Virus record (IMG/VR): IMGVR_UViG_3300037247_000308
Coordinates: 1-41,052 of that record
Direction: 5' to 3' (one strand)
Length of the DNA stretch: 41,052 nt
Source: a virus
Made by a program: the position numbers and the translations under genes
Notes under the pieces: generated by a model
What the model saw: the letters and a program-made list of their open reading frames with translations, nothing else
Database searches by the model: none
What the model was told of the DNA's origin: nothing
Shown here: positions 1-40,836 of the stretch, one piece after another
Numbering within the stretch: the stretch's first letter is position 1
Layout: each line of letters begins with the position of its first letter

Positions 1-3000
1 GTTTACGATACACTGGAAGGAAGTAGTCCTTATCTTGTTTCTAGCTGGGTAGACGGTTCTACTACCTCAGAAGGAAATGGATATAGAAGTAATCCTTATC
101 CAGCCGGAGAGGAAAGAGAACAGTTCAATAGAATATTTAAGCATTTCACTGACGGTATAGAATGGACGGAAGATGGTATTCCGTCTATGAAAAAAGACTA
201 TGTACATGTAACAGAGGTAGAAGAACAAGCGGCTCAAAAAGCACTTAACACCATCAAAGACAAGCTAGATGAAATGTTTGCGGCGATGCATCAAGGCAAG
301 GCAAGTAAAGACGGCCTTTGGTGGTATGAATACACAGCTACAAAACGTGGTAACTTAATGCAACCAAAAGACATTAACGCCCACGATGACAAGTTCGGAA
401 AGAGTGGAGCGGTGGGTTACACAGAAGCTTTGCTTCCAGATGATATTTTATATTATAAATTAAAAAGCGTAACAAACGATGTTGACGCAAATAAAACATA
501 TTTAAAGGAGAAAGAAGATGTCGGAGAAATTGAACCGGGAGACCTCCTTGACACGGCTGGGCTTGAAGGCGAAGCAACATTGGGAGAAGTGGAGGCCGAA
601 GATGGTGAAGGAGTTGAAACAGGGGCAGGTGTACCACGCCGCCCTGTTAAACGCACAGGAGAAGAGTCTAACAGTCCTAGTGAATTTGGCGAGAGCGGGT
701 CTTCAAGTGCCTTTGGCGATGGAGTTAGTGCTTCCGATGTGGATACTGCTACCGCCGGAGTCGGAGGTAATGAACTTATCGCCGGACAGGATGCCGTTCT
801 TGGAGGGGGAAACTACCGAATTACAGAATCCGATAGAGTCGGTCAGGGTACCATCAACGAAAAGTTTTCCCAAAACATTTCCGCAGTCAGAACGTTAAAG
901 CAGATAGAGGAAGAGGGTAGACATGCAACAAGAGAAGAACAGGCTATCCTTGTTAAATACGTTGGTTGGGGTGGAATGTCAAATGCTTTTGATGAATTTG
1001 CAGATGAAGGCTGGTTGGATAAATTTGAAATACTCAAGCAAACACTTAATGATGAAGAATTTTCAGCCGCTAGAAAATCAACGCTGAGTGCATTTTATAC
1101 AAGCCCTGAGATAGTGGGTAAGATGTATGATGCCTTACAGAAGTTTGGTTTTACAGGCGGGCGTATATTAGAGCCAGCCATTGGAACCGGAAACTTCTTT
1201 GGTATGCTTCCAGAAACATTACAACACTCTCAATTATCCGGTGTTGAAATGGATAGTCTTTCCGCAAGGATAAGCAAGCAGTTATATCAAAAGTCTTCTG
1301 TATTTCATTCACCTTATGAAAAGTCTATACTCCCAAGGAACTTTTACGATATAGCAATATCGAATGTGCCTTTTGAAGATGTAATACCATTCGATAGGGA
1401 TTTCAATAAAAAGAGGTTCAAGCTCCATGATTATTATTTCAATAAGTCATTAGAGGTTGTTAGACCCGGTGGTATTATTGCATTTATTACAAGTGCTGGT
1501 ACCATGGATAAGATAAACACGGAAGCAAGGAAAGAGCTTGCAAAGAAAGCCGATTTCATTGGAGCTATAAGACTCCCTGACACAGCGTTTAAAGATGCAG
1601 GTACTAAGGTAACGGCGGATGTTATTTTCCTCAGACGTAAAGGCGGTACTGGCAAAGAACTTCCATCACAGAAATGGCTTAACACAGTAAGCTATGAACA
1701 AAAGCAACCGGAAAAGACTGAGACATTTGAGATAAACGAATACTTTGCAGAAAATCCCGACATGATGTTAGGACAACTAGCACCAACTGGCAGATGGGAG
1801 GGCGGTCAGAATCTTATGTCAGATGGCAGAAACATAGATGAAGCATTAACAACGGCCATTGATAAACTTCCTTCTGATATATATAAAGAATTAGAAAACG
1901 TAGTAGAGGTAGATATTGCAGACCTCATACCCGACGAAGGTATATTTTCAGACGGCGATTACTTTGAGAAAGGCGGAGAGCTATTTACATATATTGCAGG
2001 CGAAGCGGCTGTTAAATATGAAGAAAAAACTCCACACCAAAAACGAAAAGGCAGGGTGATAAGGGAATATATTAAAGTAAGAGCAGCAAGACGGGCAATG
2101 CTTAAGGCTCAGGCGAAAGAAGAATCAGAGGAAATACAAAAGCCATTAACGGCTAAGTTAAATATAACATACGATGCGTTTGTTAAGAAGTTTGGATTTC
2201 TTAATCAACCAGAAAACTTAAGGGCATTTATTACCGACCCGGAAGCACCTAGAATTCTTGCACTGGAAAACTGGAACGATGAAACCGGAGACGCTACAAA
2301 GTCTGATATATTCTCTAAGAAGTTTATAGAAAACCTTAAACCTATAACGTCAGTAGCAAGGCCGCAAGATGCCATACCACACAGCCTGAACGCATTAGGA
2401 AGGATAGACATACCTTTCATTGCAAATCTATCCGGCAAGACAGAGGTAGAGGTTATTAAAGAGCTTGAAGGCGAGATATGGAATGACCCGGAAACAGGCT
2501 GGGTAACTTCTGACGAATATCTCAGTGGTAATATAAAACAAAAAATTACGTTGGCTGAACAGGCTGGAAAGACAGACCCTATATATACAAAAAATATCAA
2601 GGCTCTTACACCGCTTATCCCAAAAGACCTTCCGCCTTCACAGATCAGGGCTAATCTTGGTGCGCCTTGGATTGAACCACAAGACGTACAATCGTTTATA
2701 AGATTCTTAGTGCCTAATGCTAGAAGTATTCATGTTGACTATGTTCCAGAACTCGGCTTATGGAGGCTTACTTCCAGAAACCGGAGTAGTGAGGCAGAGG
2801 CTAAGAGACAGTATAAAGATGCTAAGGAATCAGTTGCGGCAACTGCTACATGGGGTACCAGTAGAAAAAACTTCTTTGACTTACTTGAAAAATACATTTT
2901 AAACGGTAGCTCACAAGGGTTGACGGTATTTGATAAAGTACCCGGAACTGATAATAAGATACTTAACACAAAGGAAACCGAAGCGGCTCAGGCAAAGTTA

Positions 3001-6000
3001 GAGGCTATTAAGGAAAGATTTTCAAAGTGGTTATGGGAGGATGACGCAAGACTTGAAAAATATGTTCGTAAATACAATGACGTATACAATGCGACAGTAG
3101 AGCGCAAATTTGATGGTAGTCATCTTACTTTTCCCGGCAAGGTACCAAATGATATTATAACTCTAACACCACATCAAAAAAATGCTGTATGGAGAGCTAT
3201 AAGCACGGGCTTTAATACTTACTTTGCACATGAAGTCGGTACAGGTAAAACATTTGCAATGGCCGCAACTATCATGGAAGCTAAAAGACTTGGACTGAAA
3301 AAGAAACCGCTACTTCTTGGTGTTAAAGCTAATGTTGACGCATTAGCGGAAGACTTCGCAAGGCTGTATCCGACCGCAAGAATTCTAAGAATGGATATAA
3401 GCGGTAACGCTTTAAAAAGAAAAATCCAACTTAATAGAATAGCTAATAATGAATGGGATGCGGTTATCATAACCCATGACAGCTTCAAGAATATACAACT
3501 AAGTGCAGAAGGTCAGGCCGAAGCAATGGAAGAAGAAATCGGCAACTTAAGGCTTTCTCTCAGTCTTGCTCAAGAGGCCGGAGCAGCAAGATTTACTGTT
3601 AAAGCAATTGAAAAAAGAATTTCAGCATTAAACGCCGAACTTGAAAAAAGAATCGCCGAACTCGCTGAATCAAAAATTGACCTTGACTTTGAAGAACTCG
3701 GAGTGGATTTAATTGTTGTTGATGAAGCCCATATATTTAAGAACATACCTTATGCCACAAAACTTGATGGTATAGTTGGTGTAAGCGGCGATGGTTCCGG
3801 TAAGGCATTTGACTTACATATGAAAACACGCTGGATAAATGAGAAATACGGCGGCGGTATTATACTTGCAAGCGGTACACCTATTACCAATAGTGTTTCT
3901 GAAATATATAACATAGGAAGGTATCTCAACCCTCAGACATTAAGAGATAAAGGCATACATACCTTTGACGCATGGGCGGCGGCCTTTGGAAATATCACAC
4001 AAACGGCAGAGTTCGCACCGGAAGGCGGCGGATACAGAATGGTCAGGAAGTTTAAGGAGTTCTTTAATATTCCAGAACTCAGGGCTATTGTCCGGGAAGT
4101 CGTTGACGTAATATCTGCTAAAGACCTTAATCTTAAGATACCTGAAATACTTACTGGAAAACCTATACCAGTGGTGATCCCACAAAATCCAATGGTAGAG
4201 GCACTTAGTCAGGAAATGATAATCCGTGCGAAGGCTATTCGTGGTGGAGGAATACAGGAACAGCCAAGACATCCAGATAAAACCGATATAATGTTTTCTA
4301 TTATAAGTGATGGCCGTAACGGTGCTATTGATATGAGATTAGTAGACCCATCTCTACCGGATCATGCAGATACAAAAGCTAATTATGCAGTAAGGAATAT
4401 ATTCCAGTCATGGAAAGCCTCAGAGAATATGAAAGCTACCCAGCTTGTATTTGCTGATAGAGGCGTGCCGGGTAAAGGTAAACATAAAAAGCCATTCGAT
4501 GTCTATAATGACATAAAAAGAAAACTTATTCAAATGGGTATTCCTGAAAAACAAATTGCCTTTCCGAGAGATTATAAAGGTAATAAGTTAAAGAAGAAAA
4601 AATTGTTTAATCAAGTGAACGCCGGAGATGTAAGAATAATTATCGGCTCTACGGCTGACATGGGTATGGGTGTTAATATTCAAGAGCGTGGTATATCTAT
4701 CCATAATCTCGATACTGAATGGACATTTGAAAAACTTGAACAACGCCGAGGCCGCTTTGTAAGACAAGGCAATATATTATATGATAAAGGCTTACCAGTA
4801 TCTATATTCAACTACATGACTGAGGGCACAGTCGATGCCTTTATGTGGGATAAAGTAGCTAATAAGAAGATTACTACCGAAGTAGTATTAACTGGTAATA
4901 CTGAACAACGTGAGGTTGAAGATGTTAGTCAGGAAAGCGTTTCAGCACAAGAGATGATGGCGTTTGCCAGTGGAGACCCAAGGTTCCTGCATAAAATAGA
5001 ACTAGAAGCCGATGTACGTAAACTCAATGCTGTAAGAGGTAACTGGGTAGATGAACAGTACAGGCTTAAGAGAGAACTAGGGGGTATACCGGGAACTATA
5101 CTGGCAATGCAAACAAGTATTAAATCCAAAGGTCTAGCTACTAAGTTCTTCGAAACCATTAACGCTGTTAAGATCGGCGATGTACTTTATGACCTTAAAC
5201 GTCATTCTAAAGAACTTGGCGAAAGAATGGCAGAGGTATTAAGTCCTAAGAATGTTAAAAAGGTTCATAAGAGTGAGAATAAAATCCCTATTGCTACATT
5301 CGGGCAAGCTATTACCGAGGAAGTAGTTACAGAGGAAGAAGTAACTACGGTTAAAACCGTTAAGGGTGAAGAGGTAAAGGCAAAGGAAAAGAAGAAAAAA
5401 GTTAATAAGGTATTACGTTGGCAGGGTAATGATGTGTCTGTTTATGTAAGAAGCCCGTTTATACTTGGAGAAGAACGCCCTACCGGAATCGAAGCTTTAA
5501 AGATCGGCACTAAAACTAAATACGGAGAGTGGGAACTAACTGCTTCCGGTGGACTAGCAAGATTACTGGCTAATACTAAAATTGCTATTGAAAATGAAAT
5601 AAAAAATCAACAAGAAATTATAGACAAAAAGGAAAAAGAACGTGACGACATCAATAAGGAAATCGCCAAGCCATTCGAGCAAGAGGAAGAACACACAGCG
5701 AAGACTGCGGAACTAACGGCACTTACTCAGGAATTAGGTGTAATTCTTCAACAACAACAAGAAGAACAAGGCAAGATAGACCCGGACTTAGAACGGTTTA
5801 AGACTGGTAATGCAGTTGATATAACAGGAGTAAAAGATACACAGCTTGATAAGGCAGATGAACAGCGAGAGGAAGATTTAAAATTGTCGGTTGATGATAA
5901 GAATACTATTGTCAGCAATGAAAAACAATGGTGGAATAAGAACGAGGAATTAGGCAAGGCGATAGTAGACAATGACATGGTTAAGAAGGCCAGCCTTGAA

Positions 6001-9000
6001 GCTGATTTAGAAAAGATCAATAAAAGGCTTTCTATATCCAAGAAAGTCAAGAGAGGCGAAGTAATCGGAGAGCACTCAGTCAGTGGAATAGTCGGAGAGG
6101 TATATAATGATTTATTCACCGAAGCCGAAAATATATTAGGCATGGGGAAGGTATCAATAGAATTAGTACCAAGGGCTGAGATAGCCGCCCTACCGGGGAT
6201 AGAAAAGATTGCAAAGGAAAAAGGGGTAGATATAGCTCTGTACAGAGAAAAGGCAAATATTAAAGGTGCCTATCAAGGGATTACGGTTAATGGTGTTGCT
6301 ACCAGAGGTATTATTAAGTTGGCAAGTGATGGCGTAACAAGCCTTGAAGGCATGGAAGGAACAGTAAGACATGAAATCTTCCATGGTGTTTTTAGAAGAC
6401 TACTCAATACTAAAGATAAAAATATAATTCTTAGGAAATATGGCAATGAAGAAAAAGCGGCAGATGCGTTTGCTGATTATATAGAATCAAAAGGCAAATT
6501 ATTACCTGTATCTATCAAAGGGATATTCGGAAGATTACAAGAGTTCTTCCAAAGACTTAATAATCTATTACAAGGTTATGGTTTTAAATCTGGCGGGGAT
6601 ATATTCGCAAAAGCCGCCGGAGGTAAACTCATAGATCAGGCCAGACACACCAAAGATAATATTGCTTTTTCAATAGAGGAAGGCGTTGCAGAGGAAGACC
6701 TTATCAGTGAAAATGACAGAGCACGTCAAAGGCTTAACTCTTTAATAAAGAAGTCTTCTATTGTAAACAGACAGGCAGAACAAGGCTTAACACACGTAGT
6801 AACTCAAAACCCTGCCAATGTTATGTTGAATAAAGATCGCAATGCCTTGGTAAAAGAAATATATTCCGGTGTTAGAAACACAGATATTAAATGGCATGAA
6901 CGCATGTTCGGCCTTCCTTGGTTCCTTGCTAAGAAATTCAAGGAATGGGATACCGCCCTTGGTATTGAACTTAAAAGAGAGGAAGACCGTAGTCTTTTAA
7001 TAAATGAATTCAATAAGAAGCAAGGTAAGATAGAGAAAGGAGAAAAAGATCACCATGAAATTATGGCTCTTAAAGCCAATGACGAAGATGGAGTGTTGTT
7101 GGCTGTTTACGAAGGTGATGCAAGAGGCGAGCAATTCAGCGATGAAACATTACGTAAAGGACTCCGGCTTGAAATGTTGGGGCAATTGGATAAAAAACAT
7201 AGTAATAAAGTGGTCAGGCTTAATGATAAACAGATAGCGGCTTATAAAGCCTTCCAGACCTCTACGGGCAAGATGAAAGAACGTGTATTAGAAGCAATAG
7301 ATAAGCTTACATATCTTCCATATTCACATGAACCTTGGGTTGAAAAACTTAAAGCTACTGTTAAACGCCATGAAATGCACCGTGCTAGACAAAAAAAAGT
7401 TGAAACCGAACAAGGCAAGAGGACAGATTATTCAGAATTAAGCGAGAAGGAAATCCCTGAACGTATGAAGGCAGAAGATAAACAAAAATTTGTTGATGCC
7501 TTCAATAAAATACTTCCTAAACAAATAAAGATATCTACTCTCCGCCGTACAATGGGAGAGGTAGTCGGATATGCTCCAAGAGTAAGACAAGGTAAGTATG
7601 TAGTAACTACTTATGATAGAGATGGAAATACTTTATGGAGTGAGAGAAGCGAAAAAGAGAAAGATACAAAGGGGTTTATAGATTCTCAGATTAACCGTCA
7701 ACAAGCTCTTGGGTTTAAATACGGTGAAGAATTTACAGTACGTAAAGAGATCAGGGATAAATCTTCTGAATTTATATTCGATCAAATTCAAGCAGCATCC
7801 GTGGAACGGTTTATAAATAAAGCACTTAATCAGGCTAAGACAAAAGAAAAAATCAGTGAGGCCGATATAAACGCTGTTACAGAGGAAATGATTATCGCAC
7901 TTACAAATGAATTTAAAGGGCGTGGGTTTGCTTCGAGAATGATGAAGCGGGCTAAAGGGTTCCCTATCGGTGGATATGATATAAGTAATATAAAAAGAAG
8001 GTTTGCTGAGTATATAAGTGGAGCCAGTGGATATATTACAAAACAGGTTGCGGCTTTTGAATATGCGAGTTTATTGTCCAGTATTGATATCAACGCCAAG
8101 CCAGACCTGTATGAAGATATTGCTAAATATAGCGGTGATTTACTACGTAACACCACAAGACTTGACAGGATAAGCGGTAGAGTGCGAACTGCCGCATTTG
8201 TCTGGTATCTTGCAGGGCAGTTAAAAAGCCCGGTTGTAAACTTTACTCAAAACTGGATACTCGGCATACCTCTCTTAGAAAAGGCCATGGGTAGACCAGC
8301 AAAAGGTCTTTACCACAAGGCTATGTTCGATGTAGCTAGAAGGAAATACACAGATAAAGAGAGAAAGTTTATAAATGAGATGGCTGATAGAGGAATTACC
8401 GGAGATCAGCTTACAAAGGAAATTACCGGACAAACACAGGCGGAGGCTGGTAAGCATCTTTCAAGTGTTATTACTATACTTGCAACACCATTCAGTTTAT
8501 CTGAAATATATAATAGAAAAGTAAGTGGTCTGGCAAGATTTAGAGCCGCAATAGCCGCCGGAGACAATTACCAAGATGCTTTTGATAAATCAAGGAAATT
8601 TATCTTTGACGTTCATTTCCTCTACGGGAAACTTAACGCTCCAAGTGGGGCAAGAGGCGGTACTCCCGGAGCGGCTATACTCAGAACATCATTGACGTTT
8701 AGAAATTATACATTTAATTTCTTACACGCTATGAAAAATATGTTAAGTGAGAGGGATTTCGCAACTGTCGCAAAATCTATGACGTATATGGCGTTACTTG
8801 GTGGTGTGAGTGCCCTGCCGTTCCTTGATGGGTTCCTTGACATGCTGGAACGTATCACTGGGATTTCATGGAGGAAAAATGTCAAAGAAGAACTTGAAAA
8901 TGTTGGTGGCGAAGTACTAGCCAATGTAGGAATACAGGGCTTACCTGCTCTTGTGGGAGTTGATATCGGCGGAAGTCTTAGAATACACTTCCCGGATATT

Positions 9001-9537
9001 ACAAACCCCGGCAAGCTAATAGAAGAATCTGTCTTCGGTGTGTATGAAGGACTAGCAATGAAAGCTGTTAATTCAATTAAGGCCGCAAGTACTGGACAAA
9101 TTACCAGAGCCTTTGAAATAGCATCTCCGACATTCATTGAGAGACCGCTTAAAGCTCTCAGACAAATGGATGATGGCTTGACCACTGTAAGGGGTAAGGT
9201 TATTAAAGACCCTACTGGGAAGCCTATAATGCCAACTACGGCAGAGAATATAGCCACTGGATTAGGCTTCCGTCCCTCAAGGCTTGCGAGGATGTCAGAT
9301 CATTACAGACAGTTTGGAAATATAAGGAAATTCTACTCTGATTGGAGATCAAATATCTATACAGAATTTAGACTTGCAAAGACTTTTGATGAAAGACAGA
9401 AAGTTATACAGGAAGTCATGGAATATAACAGAAAAGCCGGAGAGCAAAGCGGAGCGGTTATTTTAATACAATCAAAACAACTCAGACAGGCTTTAAAACA
9501 AAGGCAAGATAAAAGATTTGCCGCTTTTAGTCAATAA
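1..9537 (+). CDS. Giant polyvalent protein: methylase-like + SNF2 helicase + metallopeptidase-like (5' partial)
   Basis: The frame is open from base 1 and the first in-window ATG (187) has no Shine-Dalgarno site, so the true start lies left of the window; at least 3178 codons are present. Counting residues from that ATG: an N6-methylase-like Rossmann fold around 325-395 with SAM loop EPAIGTGNFFG and SNVPF where active enzymes have NPPY/F; an SF2/SNF2 helicase around 1015-1530 (HEVGTGKT, VVDEAH, SGTPITNS, QRRGRFVRQGN); charged coiled coil around 1795-1860; a zinc-metallopeptidase-like HEIFH near 2062; and a C-terminal third with hydrophobic stretches near 2673 and 2865. This order is known from polyvalent proteins of phages and conjugative elements such as P1 DarB, which are packaged and enter the cell with the DNA. 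Virion location and a DNA-protection role are inferred. The altered methylase motif suggests weak or no methylation, although NVPF-type motifs occur in relatives. Confidence 0.9.
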   Translation, partial: VYDTLEGSSPYLVSSWVDGSTTSEGNGYRSNPYPAGEEREQFNRIFKHFTDGIEWTEDGIPSMKKDYVHVTEVEEQAAQKALNTIKDKLDEMFAAMHQGKASKDGLWWYEYTATKRGNLMQPKDINAHDDKFGKSGAVGYTEALLPDDILYYKLKSVTNDVDANKTYLKEKEDVGEIEPGDLLDTAGLEGEATLGEVEAEDGEGVETGAGVPRRPVKRTGEESNSPSEFGESGSSSAFGDGVSASDVDTATAGVGGNELIAGQDAVLGGGNYRITESDRVGQGTINEKFSQNISAVRTLKQIEEEGRHATREEQAILVKYVGWGGMSNAFDEFADEGWLDKFEILKQTLNDEEFSAARKSTLSAFYTSPEIVGKMYDALQKFGFTGGRILEPAIGTGNFFGMLPETLQHSQLSGVEMDSLSARISKQLYQKSSVFHSPYEKSILPRNFYDIAISNVPFEDVIPFDRDFNKKRFKLHDYYFNKSLEVVRPGGIIAFITSAGTMDKINTEARKELAKKADFIGAIRLPDTAFKDAGTKVTADVIFLRRKGGTGKELPSQKWLNTVSYEQKQPEKTETFEINEYFAENPDMMLGQLAPTGRWEGGQNLMSDGRNIDEALTTAIDKLPSDIYKELENVVEVDIADLIPDEGIFSDGDYFEKGGELFTYIAGEAAVKYEEKTPHQKRKGRVIREYIKVRAARRAMLKAQAKEESEEIQKPLTAKLNITYDAFVKKFGFLNQPENLRAFITDPEAPRILALENWNDETGDATKSDIFSKKFIENLKPITSVARPQDAIPHSLNALGRIDIPFIANLSGKTEVEVIKELEGEIWNDPETGWVTSDEYLSGNIKQKITLAEQAGKTDPIYTKNIKALTPLIPKDLPPSQIRANLGAPWIEPQDVQSFIRFLVPNARSIHVDYVPELGLWRLTSRNRSSEAEAKRQYKDAKESVAATATWGTSRKNFFDLLEKYILNGSSQGLTVFDKVPGTDNKILNTKETEAAQAKLEAIKERFSKWLWEDDARLEKYVRKYNDVYNATVERKFDGSHLTFPGKVPNDIITLTPHQKNAVWRAISTGFNTYFAHEVGTGKTFAMAATIMEAKRLGLKKKPLLLGVKANVDALAEDFARLYPTARILRMDISGNALKRKIQLNRIANNEWDAVIITHDSFKNIQLSAEGQAEAMEEEIGNLRLSLSLAQEAGAARFTVKAIEKRISALNAELEKRIAELAESKIDLDFEELGVDLIVVDEAHIFKNIPYATKLDGIVGVSGDGSGKAFDLHMKTRWINEKYGGGIILASGTPITNSVSEIYNIGRYLNPQTLRDKGIHTFDAWAAAFGNITQTAEFAPEGGGYRMVRKFKEFFNIPELRAIVREVVDVISAKDLNLKIPEILTGKPIPVVIPQNPMVEALSQEMIIRAKAIRGGGIQEQPRHPDKTDIMFSIISDGRNGAIDMRLVDPSLPDHADTKANYAVRNIFQSWKASENMKATQLVFADRGVPGKGKHKKPFDVYNDIKRKLIQMGIPEKQIAFPRDYKGNKLKKKKLFNQVNAGDVRIIIGSTADMGMGVNIQERGISIHNLDTEWTFEKLEQRRGRFVRQGNILYDKGLPVSIFNYMTEGTVDAFMWDKVANKKITTEVVLTGNTEQREVEDVSQESVSAQEMMAFASGDPRFLHKIELEADVRKLNAVRGNWVDEQYRLKRELGGIPGTILAMQTSIKSKGLATKFFETINAVKIGDVLYDLKRHSKELGERMAEVLSPKNVKKVHKSENKIPIATFGQAITEEVVTEEEVTTVKTVKGEEVKAKEKKKKVNKVLRWQGNDVSVYVRSPFILGEERPTGIEALKIGTKTKYGEWELTASGGLARLLANTKIAIENEIKNQQEIIDKKEKERDDINKEIAKPFEQEEEHTAKTAELTALTQELGVILQQQQEEQGKIDPDLERFKTGNAVDITGVKDTQLDKADEQREEDLKLSVDDKNTIVSNEKQWWNKNEELGKAIVDNDMVKKASLEADLEKINKRLSISKKVKRGEVIGEHSVSGIVGEVYNDLFTEAENILGMGKVSIELVPRAEIAALPGIEKIAKEKGVDIALYREKANIKGAYQGITVNGVATRGIIKLASDGVTSLEGMEGTVRHEIFHGVFRRLLNTKDKNIILRKYGNEEKAADAFADYIESKGKLLPVSIKGIFGRLQEFFQRLNNLLQGYGFKSGGDIFAKAAGGKLIDQARHTKDNIAFSIEEGVAEEDLISENDRARQRLNSLIKKSSIVNRQAEQGLTHVVTQNPANVMLNKDRNALVKEIYSGVRNTDIKWHERMFGLPWFLAKKFKEWDTALGIELKREEDRSLLINEFNKKQGKIEKGEKDHHEIMALKANDEDGVLLAVYEGDARGEQFSDETLRKGLRLEMLGQLDKKHSNKVVRLNDKQIAAYKAFQTSTGKMKERVLEAIDKLTYLPYSHEPWVEKLKATVKRHEMHRARQKKVETEQGKRTDYSELSEKEIPERMKAEDKQKFVDAFNKILPKQIKISTLRRTMGEVVGYAPRVRQGKYVVTTYDRDGNTLWSERSEKEKDTKGFIDSQINRQQALGFKYGEEFTVRKEIRDKSSEFIFDQIQAASVERFINKALNQAKTKEKISEADINAVTEEMIIALTNEFKGRGFASRMMKRAKGFPIGGYDISNIKRRFAEYISGASGYITKQVAAFEYASLLSSIDINAKPDLYEDIAKYSGDLLRNTTRLDRISGRVRTAAFVWYLAGQLKSPVVNFTQNWILGIPLLEKAMGRPAKGLYHKAMFDVARRKYTDKERKFINEMADRGITGDQLTKEITGQTQAEAGKHLSSVITILATPFSLSEIYNRKVSGLARFRAAIAAGDNYQDAFDKSRKFIFDVHFLYGKLNAPSGARGGTPGAAILRTSLTFRNYTFNFLHAMKNMLSERDFATVAKSMTYMALLGGVSALPFLDGFLDMLERITGISWRKNVKEELENVGGEVLANVGIQGLPALVGVDIGGSLRIHFPDITNPGKLIEESVFGVYEGLAMKAVNSIKAASTGQITRAFEIASPTFIERPLKALRQMDDGLTTVRGKVIKDPTGKPIMPTTAENIATGLGFRPSRLARMSDHYRQFGNIRKFYSDWRSNIYTEFRLAKTFDERQKVIQEVMEYNRKAGEQSGAVILIQSKQLRQALKQRQDKRFAAFSQ

Positions 9538-11538: not shown

Positions 11539-12300
11539 ATGAAAACAGGGTTATTACATGAATTACTTGCAGTAGAGCCTGATTTAAGAAACACCAAAGA
11601 GAGAACACGGGATGAAGTAATAAGAGATTTTACAAGTAATCCGACAGCTTTCTTAGGTGCTGTTAAAAATCTTAAGATGTTTGATGAAGATAGAGCGGGG
11701 GAGGAACAAGAAGTAAGAGTTGAAGTAGCTAATACGGTTACAGAAAAACTTTTCAAAGTCTCAGAAACATTTACTAGGTACTGGGATTTAAGGCTTCAAA
11801 AGGAAACAGCCAACCAAGCCGCCCGTGCGGATGTAATAATAAACGGCAAAAACATCTACACTGACGTCCCTGTTACATTCTTGCTTAATATGGAGGAAGA
11901 ACTAAGACAGGTAAGAAAGGTTTATTCGGTTATACCCACACTAAAACCCGATGTTACATGGGAGGCGGATGCTAATAAAGGCCGGGGAATATACAAATCA
12001 GCATATTTCACGGAAACCTCAAAGACTGAAAAGACTAAACAGCACAAAGTTATTGTTCAGGCAACGGATAAATTCCCCGCACAAGTTGAAACATGGAATG
12101 ATGATAGGGCAATAGGTAAGTATATTACAAAAAACTGGTCAGGCATGATTAGTGAAGCAGATAAAGCGCAACTAATTTCTAGGATAGATATATTGCTTGC
12201 CGCTTTCAAGAAGGCCAGACAACGTGCTAATTGTACAGAATCTAAGCCAATACATATAGGGATGGAAGTTTTTACTTATATCCATTCTAAATTGGCCTAA
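11539..12300 (+). CDS. Conserved phage protein, DUF7873-like, 253 aa
   Basis: Strong AAAGGAGG site. The pattern LLAVEPDLRN at the start, DVPVTFLLNMEEELRQVRKV in the middle, TDKFPAQVETWNDD and the ending IHIGMEVFTYIHSKL match what I recall of a conserved protein family of many tailed phages (DUF7873), whose function is unknown. Soluble, no signal. It stands alone between two gaps: 30 nt upstream and the 500-nt tRNA block downstream. Family call is from memory of conserved motifs. Confidence 0.75.
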   Translation: MKTGLLHELLAVEPDLRNTKERTRDEVIRDFTSNPTAFLGAVKNLKMFDEDRAGEEQEVRVEVANTVTEKLFKVSETFTRYWDLRLQKETANQAARADVIINGKNIYTDVPVTFLLNMEEELRQVRKVYSVIPTLKPDVTWEADANKGRGIYKSAYFTETSKTEKTKQHKVIVQATDKFPAQVETWNDDRAIGKYITKNWSGMISEADKAQLISRIDILLAAFKKARQRANCTESKPIHIGMEVFTYIHSKLA

Positions 12301-12455
12301 AAAAAAGAGCTTATAACTAAAACTAATACTTATTGTAATATCCGGGAGTATCGGTGGATACTTAACCGGAAACTAAAACTTAATTTTTTGAAGCTCCAAA
12401 CTTATCCGATAAGTTCCAAATTTTAGTAGCAGAGTATAGTACGTCAATGCAGGAT

Positions 12456-12530
12456 AGAGGTTCGAATCCTCTCCCCGAAACTATTATCATTACGGTGGTA
12501 ACAGTTTCGGGGTAGCTTAATGGCAAAGCG
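12456..12530 (+). tRNA. Permuted tRNA-like gene: 3' half precedes 5' half
   Basis: Left part: T-arm AGAGG-TTCGAAT-CCTCT (12456-12472) followed directly by acceptor strand CCCCGAA and discriminator A (12473-12480). Right part, after a 23-nt linker (12483-12505): acceptor strand TTCGGGG (12506-12512), TA, and D-arm GCTT-AATGGCA-AAGC (12515-12529). The acceptor strands match over 10 bp (12473-12482 with 12503-12512). No matching 5' half lies upstream and no matching T-arm downstream. Outside both halves 12410-12417 and 12572-12579 are perfectly complementary (8 bp) and 12436-12441 pairs with 12549-12554, which could hold the ends together. An anticodon arm could not be assigned. Alternative: remnants of a degraded tandem tRNA pair. 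Confidence 0.6.
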
Positions 12531-12586
12531 GGTAAAACTTAAACAAGATACTATCTACATTGTGAAAAATAGGAACTTAAAACATT

Positions 12587-12658
12587 GGATATATAGCTCA
12601 ATGGTAGAGCATCCGAATATTAATCGGAAGGTTACGGGTTCGAGTCCCGTTAAATCTC
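12587..12658 (+). tRNA. tRNA-Asn (anticodon AUU)
   Basis: Acceptor GGATATA/TAAATCT (one G-U, one A-A mismatch), D-arm GCTC-AATGGTA-GAGC, anticodon stem TCCGA/TCGGA with loop ATATTAA, T-arm ACGGG-TTCGAGT-CCCGT. The loop gives anticodon AUU at 12619-12621, formally Asn for AAU; GUU is the normal form. CCA is not encoded. The weak acceptor stem and A34 are odd, so charging identity is uncertain. Confidence 0.8.
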
Positions 12659-12666
12659 ACTAATAA

Positions 12667-12704
12667 GGAGGCGGTGGAAGGTTATCCGCCGCCTCCACTT
12701 TTTT
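12667..12704 (+). terminator. Rho-independent terminator between tRNA genes
   Basis: 11-bp G+C-rich stem (12667-12677 with 12686-12696, one G-U) with an 8-nt loop, followed by ACTTTTTT. It lies 8 nt after tRNA-Asn and 8 nt before tRNA-His, so it would separate the two, or act as an attenuator or processing end; no promoter is visible before tRNA-His. Confidence 0.9.
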
Positions 12705-12711
12705 AATCTTC

Positions 12712-32460: not shown

Positions 32461-32536
32461 ACCACGGTAGCATAATTGGTAATGCACCGCACTGTTAATG
32501 CGGCAAATGCAGGTTCGAGTCCTGCCTGTGGTGCCA
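32461..32536 (+). tRNA. tRNA-Asn (anticodon GUU)
   Basis: Acceptor ACCACGG/CTGTGGT, D-arm GCAT-AATTGGTA-ATGC, anticodon stem CCGCA/TGCGG with loop CTGTTAA (GTT), T-arm GCAGG-TTCGAGT-CCTGC. Discriminator G and encoded CCA (32534-32536). A fully regular Asn tRNA, unlike the AUU one at 12587. Confidence 0.95.
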
Positions 32537-39012: not shown

Positions 39013-40836
39013 ATGGTAGAAATATTAGAAATAACAGACGAAGAACTTGGAGTAGTTGAAGAAGTTATGGATATGAAGCGTAAGGCCGTTAGAACCCGCC
39101 TTGCACATGATTATCTTTATTACGCTCCCCGGTGCCATAAAATAGTAAATAAGGCCGGGCAACTTATACCATTCAAGTTAAATGAATCCCAACTATACGT
39201 CCACGGCCTCCTACAAAAGGAGTTAGACCGCAAAGGGTACATAAGGGCTATTATGCTTAAGTGTAGACAGTGGGGCGGTTCTACCCTTGTAGAATCATGG
39301 CTTGATCATAAAATCAGTTATCGTAAAGGAAAACGAGCGGTTATTATGACAGAGGCAGATTTAAGCCGGGATAATTTATTTAATATGGTGAAGACGTTCC
39401 ATGAGAATAAACCCAAACAAGTAAAGCCACAAACAAGGGCTAGTAACGAAAAAGCGTTGATATTCGACACCCCAAAGGGTAGTCCTGTAAAAGGATTAGG
39501 AAGCAGATATGATGTTAAAACTTGTGAGTCTAAAGGTGGCTTAGGTATTACTACTCATTACATACATTTATCCGAATATGCTTTCTTTAAAGATTCCGCC
39601 CTGAATACCGTAGCTGGCCTTTTAGAAAGTGTGCCCTCAGAACACCCGGCTATTCTTGGAACGCAAATTATAATAGAAAGCACAGCAAATGGAGTTGGCG
39701 GTATTTTTTACAACACATGGAAGGAATCAGAAAAGCAAGAGGCAATGAATAAACACCCCGAATATCTCAGGATATTTATTCCTTGGTTCTATCACACCGC
39801 ATATTGTAAGGCTATTACAAATGAACAACGACAGGAAATTAAGGATACATTAGACGATGACGAGAAATTTCTACTTAAACAGGAGCTTCCAAGCGGCGCA
39901 ATGGTCTCATACGAACAATTGGCTTGGAGACGATGGAAGATCAGCACGATGTCGGCACCAATGGGATACACGAAAGAAGAATACTTTCGGCAGTGGTATC
40001 CTGCAACGGCAGAAGAAGCCTTTATATATTCCGGGAAAACCGTATTTTCTGTATCAGACCTTCGAAATGCTCAAGAGGATGTATTTGAGCCTCAGTACGT
40101 GGGGGATTTCGATATGCATAAAGGCAGATTTGAAGCTAACGCAAAAGGTATGGTTAAGATATGGGAAAAGCCAATCCCCGGTGTTAAGTATGTAATCGGA
40201 GCCGATGTAGCAGAGGGATTAATACAGGGTGACTTTACATGCTGTGATGTTCTTAAGTTGCCTTACGGTGAACAGGTAGCGCAAATACACGGTAAGATAG
40301 ACCCGGATACCTTTGGTGAAATATTGAATTTTATTGGGAGATATTACAATAAAGCATTAATGGGAGTAGAGGCTAATAATCACGGCCTAACAACTTTAAC
40401 TACTCTTAAAAGATTGAATTATTCCAATCTATATCAGAGAGAGAAACTTGACAGTATTGGTGATGGTAAAAAAGCAAAACAAGCCGGATGGCTCACCACA
40501 AAAAAATCTAAATATAAGATTATAGACGGTTTAAGAAGTGCGCTCCGGGATGGAGAGAGTGGTGTAAATTGTTCTGAAAGCCTGAAAGAAATGGGTGAAT
40601 TTACTATTCACGAAGGCGATAACGGTAGCTGTACTTACGGAGCAAAGTTAGGATGTTTTGATGATCGTGTTATTAGTTTAGCAATTGCCCTTGAAATGTT
40701 ATACACAGTTCCTAAAATGAGAGATAAAAGGGATGCAGCTATAGCTAAGAAGAAAAAGGCTTCTGGTTGGAAGCCTAATTATGAATCCGAAGAAACGGTG
40801 ACAGCAAGGAGAAAGAACGAATATGCCGCAAATTAA
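39013..40836 (+). CDS. terL: Terminase large subunit, 607 aa
   Basis: N-terminal packaging ATPase: Walker A-like KCRQWGGSTLVESW around residue 84-95, an acidic region with LSEYAFFKD near 190 and coupling motif IIIESTANGVGG near 222. C-terminal RNase H-like nuclease: VIGADVAEGLIQGDF near 395, then VEANNHGLTTLTTLKRL, and DDRVISLAIALEM near 549 for the metal site. Full length for phage TerL. Drives DNA into proheads and cuts the concatemer. The portal gene begins 14 nt before its end, as expected for a packaging operon. Confidence 0.97.
   Translation: MVEILEITDEELGVVEEVMDMKRKAVRTRLAHDYLYYAPRCHKIVNKAGQLIPFKLNESQLYVHGLLQKELDRKGYIRAIMLKCRQWGGSTLVESWLDHKISYRKGKRAVIMTEADLSRDNLFNMVKTFHENKPKQVKPQTRASNEKALIFDTPKGSPVKGLGSRYDVKTCESKGGLGITTHYIHLSEYAFFKDSALNTVAGLLESVPSEHPAILGTQIIIESTANGVGGIFYNTWKESEKQEAMNKHPEYLRIFIPWFYHTAYCKAITNEQRQEIKDTLDDDEKFLLKQELPSGAMVSYEQLAWRRWKISTMSAPMGYTKEEYFRQWYPATAEEAFIYSGKTVFSVSDLRNAQEDVFEPQYVGDFDMHKGRFEANAKGMVKIWEKPIPGVKYVIGADVAEGLIQGDFTCCDVLKLPYGEQVAQIHGKIDPDTFGEILNFIGRYYNKALMGVEANNHGLTTLTTLKRLNYSNLYQREKLDSIGDGKKAKQAGWLTTKKSKYKIIDGLRSALRDGESGVNCSESLKEMGEFTIHEGDNGSCTYGAKLGCFDDRVISLAIALEMLYTVPKMRDKRDAAIAKKKKASGWKPNYESEETVTARRKNEYAAN

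What the first reader, a model, noticed from the sequence alone, without database searches (positions are those of the whole stretch)
12410..12579. Permuted tRNA-like gene in a phage: 3' half before 5' half
Seen: complete T-arm and 3' acceptor strand (12456-12480) followed, after a 23-nt linker, by the 5' acceptor strand and a complete D-arm (12506-12529). The acceptor strands are complementary over 10 bp (12473-12482 with 12503-12512), beyond the normal 7. No partner half exists on the outer sides. Flanks are complementary too: 12410-12417 with 12572-12579 (8 bp perfect) and 12436-12441 with 12549-12554. Permuted tRNA genes are known from some red and green algae and a few archaea; a bacterial virus copy would be unusual. 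To work it needs the halves rejoined, for example by a permuted (PIE-order) self-splicing intron or by cleavage and ligation; I could not assign an anticodon arm or a group I core. Alternative: leftovers of a tandem tRNA duplication.
Basis: partly seen in the sequence, partly recalled or inferred. Interest (0 to 1): 0.88.

Follow-up and report, generated by a model that had tools for sequence, protein, structure and literature searches.

The report
DUF7873-linked permuted tRNA-mimic RNA
The stretch encodes a small RNA that folds like a tRNA with its two halves swapped and no anticodon, and the same RNA follows a gene of unknown function (DUF7873) in nearly every phage and bacterium that carries that gene, which points to an undescribed RNA-protein system related in shape to bacterial Y RNA.

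Summary
In detail: T-arm, 3' acceptor strand, linker, 5' acceptor strand, D-arm, with every stated complementarity exact. It is not a decayed tRNA, a chance match or (by the evidence here) a decoding tRNA. The gene directly upstream (11539-12300) is DUF7873. In 84 of 93 DUF7873 loci from phages, and 79 of 80 from bacterial chromosomes, one or two such permuted modules lie just downstream. Controls: 1/465 randomised, 1/90 upstream, 1/93 reverse strand. Acceptor and T stems covary at every pair. U33 is not conserved, and the 'anticodon stem' runs on into a basal stem, so nothing there could decode. Rfam's YrlA (bacterial Y RNA) is the nearest known family, but scores 29.5 bits against a cut-off of 69. 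The Y-RNA partner Ro60 is absent from the window and from 39 of 40 DUF7873 phage records. Phage versions often keep NCCA after the acceptor (51/88). Best reading: a Y-RNA-like tRNA mimic forming an RNP with DUF7873. The gene is common in actinomycetes (47 of 99 genomes of a Streptomyces order); I found no description of the system. Expression, binding and function are untested.

The parts
11539..12300 (+). DUF7873 (PF25283) protein gene, 253 aa, inferred partner of the RNA
   Evidence: Pfam E 5.2e-67; AF2 model pLDDT 91.6; a permuted tRNA-like module follows it in 84/93 phage and 79/80 bacterial loci
12301..12586 (+). noncoding interval holding the tRNA-mimic RNA (ends of the mature RNA unknown)
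   Evidence: z-score -3.5 fold; 340-1160 nt noncoding interval after DUF7873 in annotated phages
12341..12370 (+). 5' hairpin of the interval (TCCGG..GTATC/GATAC..CCGGA)
   Evidence: MFE and centroid fold; not tested for conservation
12410..12417 (+). outer basal helix, 5' strand (pairs 12572-12579)
   Evidence: exact complement; in MFE and centroid
12436..12441 (+). upper basal helix, 5' strand (pairs 12549-12554)
   Evidence: exact complement; window flanks pair better with each other than with most other loci's flanks, rank fraction 0.035
12456..12472 (+). T-arm of the permuted tRNA-like head (5-bp stem, TTCGAAT loop)
   Evidence: T stem covaries across the family
12473..12479 (+). acceptor stem, 3' strand CCCCGAA
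   Evidence: 7/7 pairs with 12506-12512; all 7 pairs covary in the family
12480..12505 (+). linker closing the acceptor; begins ACTA where most phage relatives have NCCA
   Evidence: NCCA in 51/88 phage modules, NC in 83/88
12506..12512 (+). acceptor stem, 5' strand TTCGGGG
12515..12529 (+). D-arm GCTTAATGGCAAAGC
12537..12546 (+). ACTTAAACAA, matching the CUUAAAC strand conserved after the second module in bacterial relatives
   Evidence: CTTAAAC in 30/79 bacterial and 13/84 phage loci against 0.9 and 2.5 expected
12549..12554 (+). upper basal helix, 3' strand
12572..12579 (+). outer basal helix, 3' strand
12587..12658 (+). ordinary tRNA (ARAGORN: Asn, anticodon ATT), just downstream; not part of the mimic
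12667..12706 (+). intrinsic terminator that may end the DUF7873-RNA-tRNA transcript
   Evidence: 12-pair stem with T-run

Best explanation
It is the noncoding RNA of a two-part system, DUF7873 protein plus a tRNA-mimic RNA with one or two heads, present in phages and bacterial chromosomes. Each head is a tRNA acceptor/T-arm/D-arm domain in circularly permuted order, standing on a long imperfect basal stem in place of an anticodon arm; bacterial Y RNA (YrlA) has the same topology. Inferred mechanism: DUF7873 binds the RNA (perhaps the basal stem and its conserved unpaired strand) to make an RNP. The heads present a generic tRNA elbow and acceptor end to a tRNA-binding partner such as a nuclease, a tRNA-processing enzyme or the translation machinery, and so act as tether or decoy. 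In phages, the retained NCCA after the acceptor suggests that some heads are cut at the acceptor by RNase P and 3'-processing enzymes, giving a two-piece RNA with a real tRNA-like end, as in permuted tmRNA. Shown here by computation: the permuted fold, its covariation, the linkage to DUF7873, the absence of a conserved anticodon loop, and the rarity of Ro60 in DUF7873 phages. Inferred: transcription, binding, processing and function.
For: Module directly downstream of DUF7873 in 84/93 phage and 79/80 bacterial loci, against 1/465 randomised, 1/90 upstream and 1/93 reverse strand. The covariance model recovers three more: L122, L173, and L154 on the opposite strand. Acceptor and T stems: 99.5% of cells paired, all 12 pairs with changes on both sides, covariation score 0.92 against 0.21 shuffled, 0/500 shuffles (loci were chosen for pairing, so the diversity of pair types is the informative part). 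Anticodon-stem equivalent, not used for selection: >=4/5 pairs in 80/88 phage modules against 29 expected (max 42 in 500 shuffles), bacterial 66/74 against 39. Basal stems: own flanks pair better than swapped flanks, KS p 1.8e-27 and 1.1e-16. In 46 bacterial two-head RNAs the helices of both arms are 70-100% paired; the second arm has many both-side changes, the first few because it hardly varies. U33 not conserved. NCCA 51/88 in DUF7873 phage modules against 2 of about 17 hand-picked Y-type modules, Fisher p 5e-4. Ro60 in 1/40 DUF7873 phage records; DUF7873 in 1/14 pattern-found contigs, of which 6 have Ro60. No conserved third gene at the bacterial loci. YrlA and two-piece tmRNA precedents: PMC8394870, PMC11472068, PMC3985003.
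Against: No expression or binding data. DUF7873 has no recognised RNA-binding fold; fold searches gave nothing at E <= 0.001. Bacterial versions mostly lack CCA (16/74) and close the acceptor with a 6-7 nt loop, so cleavage is unlikely to be general. In the window the NCCA has become ACTA and the anticodon-stem equivalent is not clear (3/5 pairs), so this copy may be diverged. Half of 30 bacterial DUF7873 genomes also encode Ro60 elsewhere, so a functional link to Ro60 is not excluded.
Confidence: 0.72

Rival explanations
1. It is a true Y RNA: a phage YrlA-type RNA that binds a Ro60 (Rsr) protein supplied by the host or by the missing part of the phage genome and tethers it to PNPase.
For: Same topology; RF02553 is the best non-tRNA Rfam match (29.5 bits, E 2.3e-4). 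Six of 14 pattern-found contigs with permuted modules encode Ro60. Half of 30 bacterial DUF7873 genomes have Ro60 somewhere.
Against: Score far below the 69-bit cut-off. No TROVE gene in the 41-kb window and only 1 of 40 DUF7873 phage records has one; half of the bacterial DUF7873 genomes lack Ro60. The linked gene is DUF7873, not Ro60. NCCA retention and twin heads differ.
Confidence: 0.15
2. It is a permuted tRNA gene whose halves are joined through the anticodon loop by a permuted self-splicing intron or by cleavage and ligation, giving a decoding tRNA.
For: Permuted order, intact acceptor/T/D arms, encoded CCA in many relatives, and complementary anticodon-stem halves in most relatives.
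Against: No U33 or fixed anticodon loop. The stem continues into a conserved basal stem. No group I/II intron model matched. RtcB in 5/23 records. The published permuted tRNAs are from algae and an archaeon and rely on BHB motifs and the splicing endonuclease (PMC3978253).
Confidence: 0.06
3. It is a toxin-antitoxin-like or anti-defence pair: DUF7873 is an effector and the RNA its inhibitor, or the RNA is a decoy for host nucleases that attack tRNA.
For: Protein gene plus adjacent structured RNA; patchy distribution (47/99 genomes of one order); frequent position inside phage tRNA arrays; one of 11 members shows a weak PADLOC KwaB match, E 4.6e-4.
Against: No toxin or nuclease fold recognised; the RNA lies downstream and is not a repeat array as in type III systems; the KwaB match is single and weak. 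Not mutually exclusive with the best explanation.
Confidence: 0.15
4. It is a remnant of a tandem tRNA duplication or other decayed tRNA.
For: Two normal tRNAs follow at 12587 and 12712.
Against: Acceptor, T and D stems intact here and kept by compensatory change in far relatives; linked to DUF7873 across phyla.
Confidence: 0.01

Closest known systems
YrlA / bacterial Y RNA (Rfam RF02553), partner of Rsr/Ro60
   Same: Circularly permuted T-arm, acceptor and D-arm on a basal stem with internal loops; no anticodon loop (PMC8394870, PMC11472068; alignment).
   Different: Linked to DUF7873 instead of Ro60; below the Rfam cut-off; often two heads in one RNA; NCCA kept in the phage forms.
Two-piece (permuted) tmRNA (RF04321, RF01850, RF01851)
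   Same: Same gene order T-arm, 3' acceptor, linker, 5' acceptor; helix in place of the anticodon arm; precursor thought to be cut by RNase P and tRNase Z (PMC3985003).
   Different: True 4-bp D-arm here, no tag reading frame recognised, weak model scores (12.3 and 17.1 bits); Gordonia phage Phendrix carries an ordinary tmRNA as well.
Permuted tRNA genes of algae and Thermofilum
   Same: 3' half precedes 5' half with a linker between acceptor strands; archaeal ones encode CCA (PMC3978253).
   Different: No BHB motif recognised at the junction by inspection, no anticodon loop, bacterial and phage setting without the tRNA-splicing endonuclease.
DUF7873 (Pfam PF25283)
   Same: Window protein is a member, 226.5 bits against a cut-off of 27.
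   Different: The Pfam entry is of unknown function; the linked RNA appears undescribed (no paper in the held library mentions the family).

Membership tests
DUF7873-linked permuted tRNA-mimic RNA (family defined here) | permuted T-arm/acceptor/D-arm directly downstream of a DUF7873 gene | tested here: met
DUF7873-linked permuted tRNA-mimic RNA (family defined here) | NCCA after the acceptor 3' strand (majority of phage members) | tested here: not met
   window has ACTA at 12480-12483; 51/88 phage members have NCCA, so it is frequent but not defining
DUF7873-linked permuted tRNA-mimic RNA (family defined here) | anticodon-stem equivalent continuing into a basal stem | tested here: inconclusive
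   basal helices clear in the window; anticodon-stem equivalent only 3/5 pairs
YrlA / bacterial Y RNA | Rfam RF02553 gathering score (69 bits) | tested here: not met
   29.5 bits
YrlA / bacterial Y RNA | permuted tRNA-like domain on a basal stem | tested here: met
YrlA / bacterial Y RNA | encoded with a Ro60/Rsr (TROVE) protein | tested here: not met
   none in the 41-kb window (the record is probably a fragment); 1/40 DUF7873 phage records
YrlA / bacterial Y RNA | binding to Ro60 and PNPase | not testable with these tools
   needs biochemistry
Permuted tRNA gene | halves in reversed order with paired acceptor strands | tested here: met
Permuted tRNA gene | anticodon stem and loop with U33 restored on joining | tested here: not met
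   no anticodon stem in the window; U33 not conserved in relatives
Permuted tRNA gene | BHB motif at the junction, circular intermediate | not testable with these tools
   no BHB-like helix recognised by inspection of the flanks; the intermediate needs RNA sequencing
Group I / group II permuted intron-exon (PIE) | intron core around the exon | tested here: not met
   no intron model in the window at gathering or E <= 10, nor in 9 phage loci at E <= 5 or 10 bacterial loci at gathering
Two-piece permuted tmRNA | Rfam permuted-tmRNA or clade tmRNA score and tag reading frame | tested here: not met
   12.3 bits (RF04321, cut-off 47) and 17.1 bits (RF01851, cut-off 70); tag frame looked for by eye only
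DUF7873 protein family (PF25283) | score over the Pfam cut-off | tested here: met
   226.5 bits, cut-off 27

The most novel reading that the evidence does not exclude
DUF7873 and its one- or two-headed permuted tRNA-like RNA form a previously undescribed ribonucleoprotein, separate from Ro60/Y RNA. It is present in hundreds of bacterial genomes and carried by phages, and the phage RNAs are matured at the acceptor into two-piece RNAs with a real CCA end that mimic tRNA in translation or tRNA metabolism.
Probability: 0.4. Interest if true: 0.92.

Novelty: new variant of a known kind. Interest (0 to 1): 0.8.

Why it matters
It ties a widespread protein family of unknown function to a structured RNA that standard annotation leaves out: no Rfam family reaches its cut-off there. 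It suggests that permuted tRNA mimicry, so far known from Ro60 Y RNAs and two-piece tmRNA, has a third and common setting. Because 47 of 99 sampled genomes of a Streptomyces order carry the gene, the system can be tested in ordinary laboratory strains. The phage copies raise the question of why viruses carry tRNA look-alikes that cannot decode.

Tried and rejected
Decoding permuted tRNA: no U33 or anticodon loop. Group I intron PIE: S/R-like motifs that I thought I saw by eye gave no Rfam support. Plain YrlA: below cut-off, no Ro60. RtcB-assisted joining: 5/23 records. tmRNA: weak scores, no tag frame seen. Close relatives of the window by its own helicase or DUF7873 sequence alone in IMG/VR: none; the alignment query worked. 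Structural matches of DUF7873: nothing at E <= 0.001 in PDB or BFVD. PADLOC and NCBIfam: only weak single-member matches. Conserved neighbour genes at bacterial loci: none general.

Full report
What is there. Between the stop codon of an open reading frame (12298-12300) and a tRNA gene (12587) lie a T-arm (12456-12472), the 3' acceptor strand (12473-12479), a 26-nt linker, the 5' acceptor strand (12506-12512) and a D-arm (12515-12529). The 10-bp acceptor complementarity and both flanking complementarities are perfect. The stretch folds better than all of 200 shuffles, z = -3.5. ARAGORN reports only the two normal tRNAs beside it.

First lead. A low-threshold Rfam scan matched 12426-12557 to YrlA, the bacterial Y RNA, at 29.5 bits, E 2.3e-4, well under its cut-off of 69. 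YrlA is known to contain a tRNA-like domain that is circularly permuted relative to tRNA (PMC8394870, PMC11472068). A blind pattern scan of IMG/VR found other contigs with permuted modules. Six of 14 such records encode the Y-RNA partner Ro60. The window does not.

The decisive lead was the gene next door. The ORF 11539-12300 is DUF7873 (PF25283, E 5.2e-67). In every annotated phage homologue that I opened, a noncoding interval of about 340-1160 nt follows it, and nearly all of those intervals hold one or two permuted modules. An alignment query brought 80 more IMG/VR loci, and a scan of bacterial genomes returned at least 537 DUF7873 loci, 80 of them kept, mostly Actinomycetota but also Armatimonadota, Myxococcota and cyanobacteria. 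With a strict rule (7/7 acceptor pairs, T-arm, D-arm) a module follows DUF7873 in 84 of 93 phage loci and 79 of 80 bacterial loci. Controls gave 1/465 (order-1 randomised), 1/90 (upstream) and 1/93 (reverse strand). A covariance model recovered three of the missing loci, one of them with the module on the opposite strand; one other locus is truncated. The same model, built without the window, finds the window element at 56.7 bits, E 3.8e-13; the next hits are chance pairings of neighbouring tRNAs at 33 bits or less. The model also finds Y RNAs, so it recognises the fold; the gene linkage is what separates the two groups.

Is the pairing under selection? Acceptor and T-stem pairs are standard in 99.5% of cells, and all 12 pairs show changes on both sides. 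Loci were chosen for that pairing, so the meaningful part is the diversity of pair types and the locus-level controls. The anticodon-stem equivalent was not used for selection: at least 4/5 pairs in 80/88 phage and 66/74 bacterial modules, against 29 and 39 on average when flanks are swapped between loci. Longer flanks also prefer their own partner. In 46 bacterial RNAs with two heads, a common fold emerges: a hairpin, arm 1 with basal stem CUGA/UCAG and a conserved UCGCUC strand, arm 2 with conserved CUUAAAC, and a GC-rich terminal hairpin. Arm 2's basal helices carry many both-side changes. Arm 1's are 78-99% paired but hardly vary, so they say less. The window has CTTAAAC at 12538-12544.

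What it is not. A decoding tRNA would need U33 and an anticodon loop after joining; neither appears across relatives. There is no group I or II intron match in the window or in relatives scanned, RtcB is present in only 5 of 23 records, and the known permuted tRNAs use BHB motifs and a splicing endonuclease (PMC3978253). Permuted tmRNA shares the gene order and probable RNase P/tRNase Z maturation (PMC3985003), but model scores are low and no tag frame was seen. Ro60 occurs in 1 of 40 DUF7873 phage records. In bacteria, half of 30 DUF7873 genomes have Ro60 and half do not, so DUF7873 does not depend on Ro60.

A feature that separates it from Y RNAs. After the acceptor 3' strand, NCCA is kept in 51/88 phage modules (NC in 83/88), against 2 of about 17 hand-picked Y-type modules (Fisher p 5e-4). 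Bacterial heads keep NC (66/74) but rarely CCA (16/74) and close the acceptor with a 6-7 nt loop. This suggests, but does not show, that phage heads are processed to a tRNA-like end. The window copy has ACTA and a weak anticodon-stem equivalent, so it may be diverged.

The protein. AlphaFold2 gives a confident model (pLDDT 91.6) of long helices and long beta hairpins with no structural match at E <= 0.001 in PDB or BFVD. No paper in the held library mentions DUF7873. No third gene is generally conserved beside it at bacterial loci. In one order containing Streptomyces 47 of 99 sampled genomes carry it.

Conclusion. The element is the RNA half of a DUF7873-tRNA-mimic system. Its shape is Y-RNA-like, its gene partner is different, and its function is open. 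I commit to a DUF7873 RNP that uses the heads as generic tRNA mimics (tether or decoy). Every step beyond fold, conservation and linkage is inference.

Noticed in passing
window 12587-12658: tRNA called Asn with anticodon ATT (A34), an unusual anticodon; a second tRNA-Asn with the normal GTT lies at 32461-32536.
   Followed up: no
window 187-9537: 3116-aa protein similar to DarB-like antirestriction / DNA methyltransferase phage proteins.
   Followed up: no
window 1-41052: The record looks like a fragment: replication genes, terminase near the right end (39013-40836), no structural genes recognised among the ORFs scanned; so absence of Ro60 from the window does not prove absence from the phage.
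   Followed up: partly
L095 3854-4063: A HEARO (IscB-associated) RNA lies just downstream of DUF7873 in Microcoleus phage My-WqHQDG (129 bits), where no clear permuted module was found; possibly an insertion into the RNA locus.
   Followed up: no
L097 4004-4087: Klebsiella phage Centimanus annotation lists a 'tRNA-Stop(tta)' inside the DUF7873 RNA interval; probably a mis-call of this RNA, so similar 'undetermined' phage tRNAs may hide the family.
   Followed up: no
L056, L038, L017, L073: Permuted modules in contigs with neither Ro60 nor DUF7873 detected; fragments, or further partners.
   Followed up: no
L159 record (G051): The only DUF7873 phage record of 40 that also encodes a TROVE/Ro60 protein, at 61451-61660.
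   Followed up: no
L087, L088, L092, L093: Phage DUF7873-RNA loci often sit inside or next to tRNA gene arrays.
   Followed up: partly
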